Part shown: piece after piece, positions 14,205-17,496 of the stretch | How the letters are laid out: every line of letters begins with the position of its first letter | Numbering within the stretch: the first letter of the stretch is position 1 | Assembly: GCF_001190945.1 (NCBI RefSeq) | Contig: NZ_CP011112.1 | Location: forward strand, 4,836,001 to 4,900,000 | DNA from: Luteipulveratus mongoliensis | Lineage (GTDB): Bacteria; Actinomycetota; Actinomycetes; Actinomycetales; Dermatophilaceae | DNA length: 64,000 bases | Direction: 5' to 3' | The notes under the pieces: generated by a model | Database searches by the model: none | What the model saw: only the letters and a program-made list of their open reading frames with translations | Told to the model about the DNA's origin: nothing | Position numbers and translations under genes: made by a program

Positions 14205-14729
14205 ATGGAGTTCGACGTCACCATCGAGATCCCCCGGGGCAACCGGAACAAGTACGAGATCGACCACGAGACCGGCCGCATCCGGCTCGACCGTCGGCTC
14301 TTCACATCGATGGCCTACCCCGCCGACTACGGCTACATCGAGCACACGCTCGGCGAGGACGGCGACCCGCTGGACGCGATCCTGCTCATCGAGGAGTCGG
14401 TCTACCCCGGCGTCGTCGTCGAGGCACGCCCGGTCGCGGTCTTCAAGATGACCGACGAGGCTGGTGGCGACGACAAGGTGCTGTGCGTCGTGGCGGGCGA
14501 CCCGCGTACGGAGCGCACCAACGACCTCGAGGACGTCGAGCCGTTCCTGCTGAAGGAGATTCAGCACTTCTTCGAGACCTACAAGGCGCTTGAGCCGGGC
14601 AAGTCGGTCGAGGAGGGCTCGCACTGGGTCGGTCGCGACGAGGCCGAGAAGATCGTCGGCGAGGCCATCGAGCGCGCCAAGAGCAAGGGCCTCTCGACCG
14701 CCCGCTGGGCGATGCCCGAGGGCCACTGA
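14205..14729 (+). CDS. ppa: Inorganic pyrophosphatase (family I)
   Basis: 174 residues; hydrolyses pyrophosphate to drive biosynthesis. The signature EDGDPLDAI with the metal-binding aspartates, [12 protein letters not shown] at the N-terminus, [13 protein letters not shown] and the KKxE-like region near [17 protein letters not shown] are all present. Normal length. Divergent from dacB across about 110 bases. A half copy of the GGTCGAGTAG palindromic repeat begins 12 bases after its stop. Confidence 0.97.
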
Positions 14730-14740
14730 CCCACACCGCC

Positions 14741-14800
14741 GGTCGAGTAGCCGGAGCGCCAGCGGAGGCGTATCGAGACCCGGTGACCGCGTGCGCCTGG
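14741..14800. repeat. Palindromic repeat, left half, split by IS110
   Basis: Begins GGTCGAGTAGCCGGAGCGCC and runs to CCTGG at the IS border. Compared with the intact copy at 19545-19650, it is the left arm plus loop; the right arm lies on the other side of the insertion at 16121. Confidence 0.85.
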
Positions 14801-14816
14801 ACGCTCCTATGGGTCG

Positions 14817-15863
14817 TCAAGTGGTTGCGGGGTGTTGGAGAAGTCGGTAGATGTCTCGGGCGATGTAGCGCTTGAGGCAGCGGGTGATCTCGCGTCTGGT
14901 CTTGCCTTCGCTGGTGCGGCGGGCGACGTAGTCGCGGGTGTTCTGGTCGTAGCGGATCCGGGTGAGGGCGATGGTGTGCAAGGCCCGGTTGAGCTGGCGG
15001 TCGCCGTATCGGTTGAGTCGGTGCCGGGTGATCTGACCGCTGCTGGCGGGGATCGGCGCAGTGCCGGCGATCATCGCGAAGGCTGCCTCGGAGTGGATGC
15101 GTCCGTTGTGGGACCAGGCGCACAGGATGGTCGCGGCCACGATCGGTCCGATGCCGGACTGGGTCAGCAGGTCTGGTCGCCAGGAGGTGACGATCGCCAG
15201 GATTGCTTTTTGGTGCTGCTCGGCTTCAGCGGCCAGGGTGCGGGCGCGGCGTGCCAGGGCCCGTAGTGCGGTGATCGTGGTGGTGGTCTCGGTGTCCGCT
15301 GCGGTGCGCACGCGTAGGGCTGCCGCGGTGGCGATCATCGCGGGCAGCCGTTGCCCGCGGAACCGGGCTCGGATGGGTTCAGGGGCGGCGATGACCAGCG
15401 CGAACAGCTGACGTTGGGCGTCGGTGGAGGCGTTGACCGCGGAGCGTCGCGCGGCCAGCAGCACCGACAGTGCCTGCCGGTCGCCGCTGGCTCGTGGGGT
15501 GCCTAGCCGGGGTCGGGCCATCGCTTCTCGGGCCGCGCGGACCGCGTCCAGCGGGTCGGACTTGGCACCGCCTCGGCGCTGGGCGCGTTGAGGGCGGTCC
15601 AGCTCGACCACCATCTCCTGCCGGCCGCTCAGCAGCCGCGTCAGGCCGGCGCCATGGCTGCTGGTGCCCTCGATCGCCCAAGCCCGCAGCACTGCGTGCT
15701 CGTCGGCGAACGCCACCAGGCGGGCGTAACCGGCCGCGGTGGCCTCCACCGTGATCTCACCCCGCACACCACCGGTGCGAGCATCAACAGCAGCCGCGCT
15801 GTGGGTGGCCACGTGAGTATCGACGCCGATGACGACATCGACCACATCAGTCAGACTGGTCAT
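14817..15863 (-). CDS. IS110-family DEDD transposase
   Basis: 348 residues from the ATG at 15863, preceded by AAAGGAGAG. The N-terminal RuvC-like DEDD domain has D15 (GVDTH), E65 (AIEGTSSHG), D103 and D106 (KSDPLDAVRAAR). The C-terminal Transposase_20 domain carries the catalytic serine region at 273-276 (ASSGQ) followed by HRLNRYGDRQLNRAL. Full length without frameshift, so probably functional. These recombinases use a structured bridge RNA to choose donor and target. Confidence 0.93.
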   Translation of the reverse strand: MTSLTDVVDVVIGVDTHVATHSAAAVDARTGGVRGEITVEATAAGYARLVAFADEHAVLRAWAIEGTSSHGAGLTRLLSGRQEMVVELDRPQRAQRRGGAKSDPLDAVRAAREAMARPRLGTPRASGDRQALSVLLAARRSAVNASTDAQRQLFALVIAAPEPIRARFRGQRLPAMIATAAALRVRTAADTETTTTITALRALARRARTLAAEAEQHQKAILAIVTSWRPDLLTQSGIGPIVAATILCAWSHNGRIHSEAAFAMIAGTAPIPASSGQITRHRLNRYGDRQLNRALHTIALTRIRYDQNTRDYVARRTSEGKTRREITRCLKRYIARDIYRLLQHPATT

Positions 15864-15914
15864 GCGTTCTCTCCTTTGTCGGAACGGGACGTGCTCCGGT
15901 CCGGATCGGAGAGT

Positions 15915-16080
15915 CGGCAGGACTGTGATGGGACACATCGCGCGCCGCTAACGCTCGATGGTCAAGCTCCTGATCAGGCCAGCAACTCCGACCGGGCCGG
16001 GGTCGGCAACCACGAGCGGACAAGTCCAGGCAAAGGCACCAAGCCAGTCTCGATACGGGTCACACCCGCGGCCACCAACC
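15915..16080 (-). ncRNA. Candidate IS110 bridge RNA
   Basis: Read on the minus strand, this region contains in order: CCGTATCGAGAC (16058-16047), identical to the target flank next to the upstream end; GCCTGG (16031-16026), complementary to the other target flank; GAGCGT (15956-15951), identical to the element's downstream terminus; and TCACAG (15928-15923), complementary to its upstream terminus. This is the guide order known for IS621 (target loop then donor loop). The RNA ends are approximate and I did not fold it. Confidence 0.7.
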
Positions 16081-16120
16081 ACAGCCCAGCACCAACAAGG
16101 CCGCGACACGAGCCTCACAG

Positions 16121-16164
16121 TCTCGATACGGCTCGCCCTAGGGGGCTCGCCTACTCGACCAGCG
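16121..16164. repeat. Palindromic repeat, right half, split by IS110
   Basis: TCTCGATACGGCTCGCCC through CTACTCGACCAGCG; the partner of 14741-14800. It ends 10 bases before the stop of the MFS gene. Confidence 0.85.
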
Positions 16165-16173
16165 AGGGTTGGG

Positions 16174-17496
16174 TCAGGCGGCGATGCGGAGTTTTTCGGG
16201 GATCAGGTGGTCGTACGCACCCGTCTCGTCCGCATGAATGTGTCGGCGGGTGCGTCGCCTGTAGCGCACGATCATCGCGATGCCGGTGAACCAGACGAGG
16301 TACTGCACCGCCATGGCCCAGCGGAACGAGTCGACCGTGTAGGTCGACGGTCCGCCCGGCGAGACCCGGTCGAGCACCGCACCGATCAGCACCACGGTCC
16401 CGAGCGCGGCCACGAAGCCGCCCACGTTGACGATGCCGGTCGCGCTGCCGATCCGGGTCGGCGGGTTGAAGGTGCGGGCCAGGTCGAACCCGATCATCGA
16501 GCCGGGTCCGCCGACGGCGGTCACCATGACGAGCACGATCAGCAGCCAGATCGGCGCCCGCCCGGGCCACAGCAGCACCACGGTCCAGACCGTCATGATC
16601 GCCGCGACGACCCCCAGGATCAGGGTCGAGCGCGAGTAGGGGTAGCGCGTCACGAACACCCCGAAGAGCGGGCTGCTGATCACCGTCGTGACGACCATCA
16701 GCGCGAGCAGCTGGCTGGCCTGACCGGTGCTGAGGCCTTGCCCGGCGGTCAGGAACGGGAAACCCCACATGATCGCGAAGACGTTGGCGCTGAACTGGGC
16801 CGTGAAGTGGCACCACAGACCGAGGCGAGTGCCGGGCTCACGCCAGGCGTGACGTACGGCTCGGCCCACCGCTCGCATCTTGAGCTCGGTGCGCTCGCGG
16901 TCGGCGTACGGGCTGTCCCGGACGACGAAGAGCAGCACCACCCCGAGCACGACGCCCAGCCCTGACGCCATCAGGAAGGACGTGGTCCAGCCAAGTCCGT
17001 CGAGGCTGGCCGCGAGCGGTCCGGCTGCGGCGAGCGCGCCGAGCTGGCCGGCGAACCCGGTCACCTGGGTGACCATCGGCGTACGGGCTGACGGGAACCA
17101 CAGCGCGACGAGCCGCAGGACCGAGACGAAGACCATGGCGTCACCCATGCCGACGAACACCCTGGCGAGGATGCCCGCCGCGTAGGAGTCGACGAACGCG
17201 AAGGCCAGCTGCGCCAGCGACATCGTGGTGACCCCAGCGATCAGGAGCACGCGCGAGCCGTAGCGGTCGAGCAGCGCGCCGACCGGGATCTGCATTGCGG
17301 CGTAGACCGCGAGCTGGACCATCGCGAACGTCGCCAGCTGGGCGGAGCTGATGTGGAAGCGGTCGGCCGCGACCAGGCCTGCCACGCCGAGCGAGGTGCG
17401 GTGGAAGATCGCCAGGATGTAGACGAGGACGGCGCTGGTCCACACCATCCAGGCGCGCGAGCCCCCGAGGGGGAAACGCAGCGTACGGTCGCTCAT
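16174..17496 (-). CDS. MFS transporter
   Basis: 440 residues with about 12 hydrophobic helices and the MFS loop pattern GALLDRYGSRVLL between helices 2 and 3 (residues about 77-90). The region around GFAGQLGALAAAGPLAASLDGLGWTTSFL resembles the nitrate/nitrite porter and sugar-acid families, but the substrate cannot be named. The start overlaps the GntR stop by ATGA, so the two form an operon and the regulator likely responds to the transported ligand. Confidence 0.85.
   Translation of the reverse strand: MSDRTLRFPLGGSRAWMVWTSAVLVYILAIFHRTSLGVAGLVAADRFHISSAQLATFAMVQLAVYAAMQIPVGALLDRYGSRVLLIAGVTTMSLAQLAFAFVDSYAAGILARVFVGMGDAMVFVSVLRLVALWFPSARTPMVTQVTGFAGQLGALAAAGPLAASLDGLGWTTSFLMASGLGVVLGVVLLFVVRDSPYADRERTELKMRAVGRAVRHAWREPGTRLGLWCHFTAQFSANVFAIMWGFPFLTAGQGLSTGQASQLLALMVVTTVISSPLFGVFVTRYPYSRSTLILGVVAAIMTVWTVVLLWPGRAPIWLLIVLVMVTAVGGPGSMIGFDLARTFNPPTRIGSATGIVNVGGFVAALGTVVLIGAVLDRVSPGGPSTYTVDSFRWAMAVQYLVWFTGIAMIVRYRRRTRRHIHADETGAYDHLIPEKLRIAA

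What the first reader, a model, noticed from the sequence alone, without database searches (positions are those of the whole stretch)
15915..16080. Bridge-RNA guides of an IS110 element readable from sequence
The non-coding end of the IS contains, on the transposase strand and in order: a 12-base segment identical to one target flank (16058-16047), a 6-base segment complementary to the other flank (16031-16026), a 6-base segment identical to one element end (15956-15951) and a 6-base segment complementary to the other end (15928-15923). This is the LTG-RTG-LDG-RDG order of the IS621 bridge RNA. The target is a chromosomal repeat present in several copies, so the guide shows how this element is aimed at a genomic repeat family.
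Basis: partly seen in the sequence, partly recalled or inferred. Interest (0 to 1): 0.85.

Follow-up and report, generated by a model that had tools for sequence, protein, structure and literature searches.

The report
IS110 jumping gene aimed at repeats
This is a small bacterial jumping gene of a known family that carries an RNA address label, and the label matches a palindromic repeat scattered through its host genome, so the element lands in repeats between genes.

Summary
This is a 1,320-bp IS110-group insertion sequence (16120 to 14800, minus strand) whose 5' non-coding end encodes a two-loop bridge RNA. Over 26 distinct guides, the 9-nt left target guide matches its own flank at 138 of 156 variable positions, against 59 +/- 6.9 in permutations (0 of 20,000). 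The right guide covaries too, and the target stem shows compensatory changes. Both genomic copies sit at the guide-matched point of the repeat (left unit shortened at copy 2); 89 further sites fit exactly. A relative with another guide has both its copies in a different palindromic repeat. Of 7 elements tested, 3 clearly target an abundant host repeat, 1 weakly, 3 not. REP-targeting IS110 elements are known, so this is a new member of a known kind.

The parts
14800..16120 (-). IS110-group insertion sequence, core C (16120) to core C (14800), 1,320 bp from one core base to the other
   Evidence: Boundaries from two genomic copies and from joined flanks that line up with uninterrupted repeats
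14817..15863 (-). transposase (DEDD + Transposase_20; NCBIfam IS110 family RNA-guided transposase), 348 aa, ATG behind AAAGGAG
   Evidence: profile of 17 sequences (window + 16 relatives) matches IS621 8wt6, E 2.3e-10. A longer reading from an ATG at 15938 exists
15864..16119 (-). left end (LE), 256 bp, non-coding, holds the bridge RNA
   Evidence: Aligned in 33 sequences
14801..14816 (-). right end (RE), 16 bp after the stop codon, terminus AGGAGCGT; a TTGAC overlaps the stop codon
16047..16055 (-). left target guide, 9 nt TATCGAGAC (last base = core C, at 16047)
   Evidence: Covariation with left flank, sharp stop after position -8
16026..16031 (-). right target guide GCCTGG (last base, 16026, pairs with core C), followed by proposed handshake bases AC at 16025-16024
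   Evidence: Covariation with right flank; handshake reading inferred
15963..15971 (-). left donor guide AGGAGCTTG (matches RE AGGAGCGTC at the first six bases and one later base)
   Evidence: AGGAGC in 33 of 33; five distant relatives have ATAGGAGC here, and RE ATAGGAGC in the four whose RE was found
15923..15928 (-). right donor guide TCACAG (complement of LE CTGTGA), followed by proposed handshake bases TC at 15922-15921
   Evidence: 33 of 33; TCACTG together with LE CAGTGA in five distant relatives
16003..16078 (-). target-binding loop: outer stem 16078-16059/16021-16003, hairpin 16045-16043/16037-16035
   Evidence: 9 of 19 stem pairs have compensatory changes
   Evidence: Consensus prediction on A1; 2 of 11 hairpin pairs have compensatory changes, outer stems almost invariant
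16121..16163 (-). left half of the target repeat (inverted unit ending CCGTATCGAGA before the core C)
14741..14799 (-). right half of the target repeat, starting CAGGCGCACGCGGTCACC and continuing into the opposite unit

Best explanation
An IS110-group insertion sequence encodes a bridge RNA in its left end. The target loop (LTG 9 nt, RTG about 5 nt plus core) pairs with the two strands of a host palindromic repeat; the donor loop (LDG AGGAGC, RDG TCACAG) pairs with the joined ends of the excised circle. The DEDD/serine recombinase then exchanges strands next to a single shared C, placing the element between the two inverted units of the repeat. SHOWN by sequence: guide/flank covariation, consensus two-loop fold, boundaries, insertion at the guide-matched point of the repeat, many empty matching sites. 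INFERRED from IS621: RNA expression, protein binding, circle intermediate, strand exchange, handshake pairing, and use of the -35/-10-like pair formed when right end joins left end.
For: 26 distinct guides: 138 of 156 variable positions match own flank, permutation mean 59, sd 6.9, 0 of 20,000. Guide edge at 9 nt, shifted registers lose the match. RTG 108 of 186, permutation mean 65.8, sd 6.0, 0 of 20,000. Fold: 11 of 50 pairs with compensatory changes, shuffles 3.9 +/- 1.3, 0 of 500; slid structures 2-5. Both genomic copies at the guide-matched repeat; joined flanks line up with uninterrupted repeats. 89 exact 13-nt sites in the genome, 0 for the reversed control. IS621 homology, IS110 RNA-guided transposase model. 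A relative in genome G114 has another guide and both its copies lie in the loop of another palindromic repeat.
Against: No RNA or protein data. Donor guides are invariant within the close clade, so they rest on identity and on one coordinated base change in distant relatives. L051 matches 5 of 9 and L048 7 of 9. RTG y3-y5 are weakly supported. Rows were found with sequence anchors that include guide positions -2 to 0 and the bases next to RTG, so conservation there is not evidence; the permutation leaves -2 to 0 out. The counted fold was derived from the same alignment, and single-sequence folds of the window disagree on the donor part. At copy 2 the left repeat unit is shortened. The window's -10-like box (GAGGCT) has 2 of 6 consensus bases, and no shuffle control was run for the promoter.
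Confidence: 0.94

Rival explanations
1. The LE contains the repeat-like words because the element picked up a piece of a neighbouring repeat, or by chance; the RNA does not guide anything.
For: The repeat is so common in this genome (185 sites) that a stray copy in the IS is conceivable.
Against: In relatives with different flanks the same LE position carries that element's own flank, bounded at 9 nt.
Confidence: 0.03
2. The transposase itself, not an RNA, recognises the repeat or its hairpin shape, as suggested for the REP-specific IS3-family elements IS1397 and ISKpn1 (PMC1525189, passages).
For: Target sites of the window element and of L111 are centres of palindromes.
Against: Relatives with 69-79% identical transposases sit at other sites that follow their guides.
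Confidence: 0.03
3. The guides are real but this element is now inactive: two copies left over, perhaps one duplicated by recombination between repeats.
For: Only two copies found, against 89 empty exact sites; none in the two other genomes of the genus searched.
Against: The two copies are nearly identical (99% over the wider match, 100% rounded), with reading frame and RNA parts intact and different sequence around them.
Confidence: 0.15

Closest known systems
IS621 and its bridge RNA (PMC11208160, PMC11208158)
   Same: IS110 group, RNA in the left end, order LTG-RTG-LDG-RDG, 9-nt LTG, top/bottom strand scheme, insertion into REP repeats, promoter-like pair across the joined ends, homologous recombinase C-terminal part.
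   Different: IS621 has a CT core dinucleotide in target and donor; here only one base (C) is shared, the base before it being A in the target (G in two elements) and T in the donor. No Rfam family matched above chance level.
ISEc21 and the IS110/IS1111 seekRNAs (PMC11187229)
   Same: RNA from the upstream non-coding region of an IS110-type element, bottom-strand match before top-strand match; natural reprogramming between relatives is described there (for IS1111 members).
   Different: Other hosts and targets; their short seekRNA form was not looked for here.
ISPpu9, ISPpu10, ISPa11, ISRm19 in REP repeats (PMC1525189)
   Same: IS110-family elements inserted specifically in the host's REP repeats.
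   Different: Pseudomonas and Sinorhizobium REPs, and a 2006 study before guides were known. Here different guides of one clade match different hosts' repeats.

Membership tests
IS110 family, IS110 group | DEDD (RuvC-like) domain plus Transposase_20 domain with serine | tested here: met
   Pfam PF01548 and PF02371, NCBIfam NF033542 above cut-off, profile aligned with IS621 including an SG motif; naming that serine S241 follows PMC11208158
IS110 family, IS110 group | long non-coding left end, short right end | tested here: met
   LE 256 bp, RE 16 bp
IS110 bridge RNA | two internal loops in the order target, donor | tested here: met
   Consensus fold with compensatory changes, 9 of 11 in the target stem; the donor part is less certain
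IS110 bridge RNA | target guides covary with insertion-site flanks on opposite strands | tested here: met
IS110 bridge RNA | donor guides match the element's ends | tested here: met
   AGGAGC and TCACAG in 33 of 33; one coordinated change in five distant relatives
IS621-like CT core | same core dinucleotide in target and donor | tested here: not met
   Only one base C is shared; base -1 is A or G in targets, T in donors
IS110 bridge RNA | RNA is expressed and bound by the recombinase | not testable with these tools
   Needs RNA sequencing and pull-down

The most novel reading that the evidence does not exclude
One actinobacterial IS110 clade repeatedly rewrites its 9-nt guide to follow whatever palindromic repeat is abundant in each new host, while using a one-base core whose mismatched neighbour (target A, donor T) is paired only after strand exchange, so that the handshake bases drive the reaction forward.
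Probability: 0.35. Interest if true: 0.6.

Novelty: new member of a known kind. Interest (0 to 1): 0.45.

Why it matters
It gives a natural set in which guides and targets can be read from sequence alone, shows RNA-guided insertion into dispersed palindromic repeats in actinobacteria, and offers natural examples of retargeting (26 distinct guides) and of a one-base core that could be compared with IS621 when designing recombination tools.

Tried and rejected
Rfam search of 14600-16300 gave one chance-level microRNA match (E 2.6, below its gathering score), so no curated family names this RNA. A single-sequence PDB search found nothing; the profile did. A 9-base pattern, GTCGAGACC, was too short to be informative and was replaced by 10-base patterns. 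Host-repeat tracking is not general: of seven elements tested, own-genome counts were clearly enriched for three (window 315, L049 195, L111 12), weakly for L034 (14, against 1-6 elsewhere), and not for L042 (9), L043 (27) or L026 (3). The L111 pattern was 12 bases long and holds two flank bases beyond the guide, unlike the 10-base patterns. Handshake agreement has exceptions: L036 (RDG side), L038 (donor side), L050 and L063 (target G). In L067 and L078 the donor-guide place reads AGAAGC; their right ends were not found, so this could not be checked. RNAalifold also paired bases of LDG with RDG; these pairs hardly vary, and I left them out of the counted structure, with the weak closing pairs at columns 36-44.

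Rows left out. One search found elements by sequence anchors; loci without them were not parsed. L109 (same as L001), a false anchor in L039, L028 (N at the junction), L029 and L046 (flank too short). Alignment A1 (33 rows): duplicates (listed), L052 (no target loop), truncated loci, and distant relatives L059, L063, L064, L067-L069, L078. One search collapsed 48 rows, which include places fetched twice from two collections, to 26 distinct guides.

Full report
What is there. On the minus strand a 348-aa transposase (15863-14817) carries the two IS110-family domains and passes NCBI's model 'IS110 family RNA-guided transposase' (149.7 bits, cut-off 140). A profile of 17 sequences (the window and 16 relatives) matches IS621 (8wt6) with E 2.3e-10 and ISCro4 (9t56) with E 3.9e-10. 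The genome holds one further, almost identical copy; two other genomes of the genus have none, and 32 of 186 family genomes, this one included, have some match at E 1e-20 or better. Joining the flanks of either copy after removing the element and one C gives a sequence that lines up without a gap, around the junction, with uninterrupted repeats, e.g. CGTATCGAGAC|CAGGTGCACGCGGTCACCGGGTCTCGATACG; 28 such empty sites were printed. At copy 2 the left unit is shortened: only about its last 20 bases are repeat. The element therefore runs from core C 16120 to core C 14800, 1,320 bp, with a 256-bp left end and a 16-bp right end. It lies between an inorganic pyrophosphatase gene and an MFS transporter gene, whose 3' ends face each other.

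The target. The repeat is a pair of inverted units of about 40 bp separated by a linker of about 20 bp, like the BIMEs of enterobacteria. CGTATCGAGACCNGG occurs 185 times in this genome, TATCGAGACCAGG 89 times; the reversed control patterns occur 0 times. LTG plus the first right-hand base, TATCGAGACC, occurs 315 times here (reversed control 3) and 0 to 14 times in seven other genomes.

The guides. I parsed 35 distinct copies of the element from this genome, genome contigs and family genomes. For 32 with a left flank, identity between guide and own flank, going upstream from the core C, is 1.0, 1.0.97.84.97.81.88.97.84, then .09.28.53; for other elements' flanks the first nine are 1.0.93.97.42.28.26.46.63.42 and the next three .13.28.49. 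So the guide is nine bases and ends sharply; the three most conserved positions are in part imposed by the search anchors. After adding distant relatives, collapsing 48 rows to 26 distinct guides and using only the six variable positions, 138 of 156 match, against 59 +/- 6.9 in permutations, 0 of 20,000; the own flank is best or tied best for 24 of 26. For the right guide (31 copies) 108 of 186 positions match, against 65.8 +/- 6.0, 0 of 20,000, with y1 .97 and y2 .94 carrying most of it.

The fold. In 33 left ends the consensus structure has a long target-loop stem, a small hairpin between LTG and RTG, and a donor module. Counting 50 pairs of it: 97.5% of cells paired, 11 pairs with changes on both sides (shuffles 3.9 +/- 1.3, 0 of 500), covariation score .163 (shuffles .125); slid structures give 2-5 such pairs. 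The structure came from this same alignment, which favours it over the slid versions. Nine of the eleven are in the target stem, two in the donor hairpin; the donor outer stems are almost invariant and say little. The window left end alone folds better than 200 of 200 shuffles (z -2.36), but its donor part folds differently when a few more bases are given. Five distant relatives (L059, L063, L069: 46, 48, 39% identical; L064 and L068: 46 and 51% in best segments) have different stem sequences and also fold into a long target stem in minimum-energy predictions; they carry guide/flank matches of 7-9 of 9.

Correction of the donor guide. That hexamer lies in the donor hairpin and is GAGCGT in 1 of 33. 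AGGAGC at 15971-15966 is invariant in 33 of 33 and equals part of the right end. LTG end to RTG end is 21 bases here and 22 in IS621; LTG end to LDG start 76 and 65; LDG start to RDG end 48 and 42 (IS621 numbers from passages of PMC11208158).

Core and handshake. Target and donor share only one C. The base before it is A in the targets read, except G in L050 and L063, and T in the donors read. The bases after RTG specify the donor's GT, those after RDG the target's GA; the search anchors fix part of this. In the two distant relatives whose target has AA before the C (L059, L068) the RDG side changes too, and donors with AT go with an RTG side specifying AT; the donor change is one difference between two clades. 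This fits the handshake guides described for IS621 (PMC11208158, passages). There are four exceptions, listed under Tried and rejected. The mechanism is inferred.

Promoter-like pair. In 32 of 32 joined ends the right end has TTGAC; in 27 of them (26 GAGGAT, 1 GAGAAT) a -10-like box with an upstream TG starts 18 bases on. The window itself has the weaker GAGGCT. The TTGAC overlaps the stop codon in the window and no shuffle control was run, so this is suggestive only.

Retargeting. L111 in genome G114 has another guide, TCGGGTGAC. TATCGGGTGACC occurs 12 times there and 0 or 1 time in five other genomes; all 12 lie in the loop of a dispersed palindrome GCAGGATTATCGG-GTGAC-CCGATAATCCTGC or a variant of it, and both copies of that element sit in that loop. 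L049's guide target occurs 195 times in its own genome and at most 15 times in seven others. L034's is weakly enriched (14 against 1-6). L042, L043 and L026 are not enriched. In Raineyella (L047, L048) and in genome G036 (L120, L154), copies with the same guide lie at different sites that share mainly guide-matched bases.

Known work. IS110-family insertion into REP repeats, IS621 included, was described by 2006 (PMC1525189, passages). Bridge RNAs and seekRNAs were described in 2024, with natural reprogramming (PMC11208160, passages, outline and section 12; PMC11208158, passages; PMC11187229, passages). Three searches of the held library (4 of 4, 14 of 14 and 20 of 24 papers listed) showed, by title and start of abstract, no paper on this actinobacterial clade; apart from the four named, those papers were not opened.

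Verdict. A well-supported new member of the IS110 bridge-RNA kind. The unusual points are the one-base core and the aiming at different host-specific palindromes, the latter clear in three of seven tested elements and weak in a fourth.

Noticed in passing
L052:1329-1500: A relative in Nostocoides whose left end lacks the target-binding loop but keeps the donor loop, beside a reading 58% identical to the transposase in its best segment; perhaps a dead element.
   Followed up: no
L111 and L153 (genome G114); L139, L142-L152: A dispersed imperfect palindrome (AAGGTTCTGCTACGAAG...CAGGATTATCGG-GTGAC-CCGATAATCCTG) is the target of a reprogrammed relative; both IS copies sit in its loop.
   Followed up: partly
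L034 genome (G190), e.g. C3:124653-124848: Target word CGGTATGACG of the L034 element occurs in small tandem arrays with a period of about 62 bases.
   Followed up: no
L043:1229-1489: The hairpin between LTG and RTG is enlarged by about 13 bases compared with the other rows of alignment A1.
   Followed up: no
genome G187 (host of L049): TCTCGAGACC occurs 195 times; many of the listed places are closely spaced inverted pairs, a repeat family like that of the window genome but with another word.
   Followed up: no
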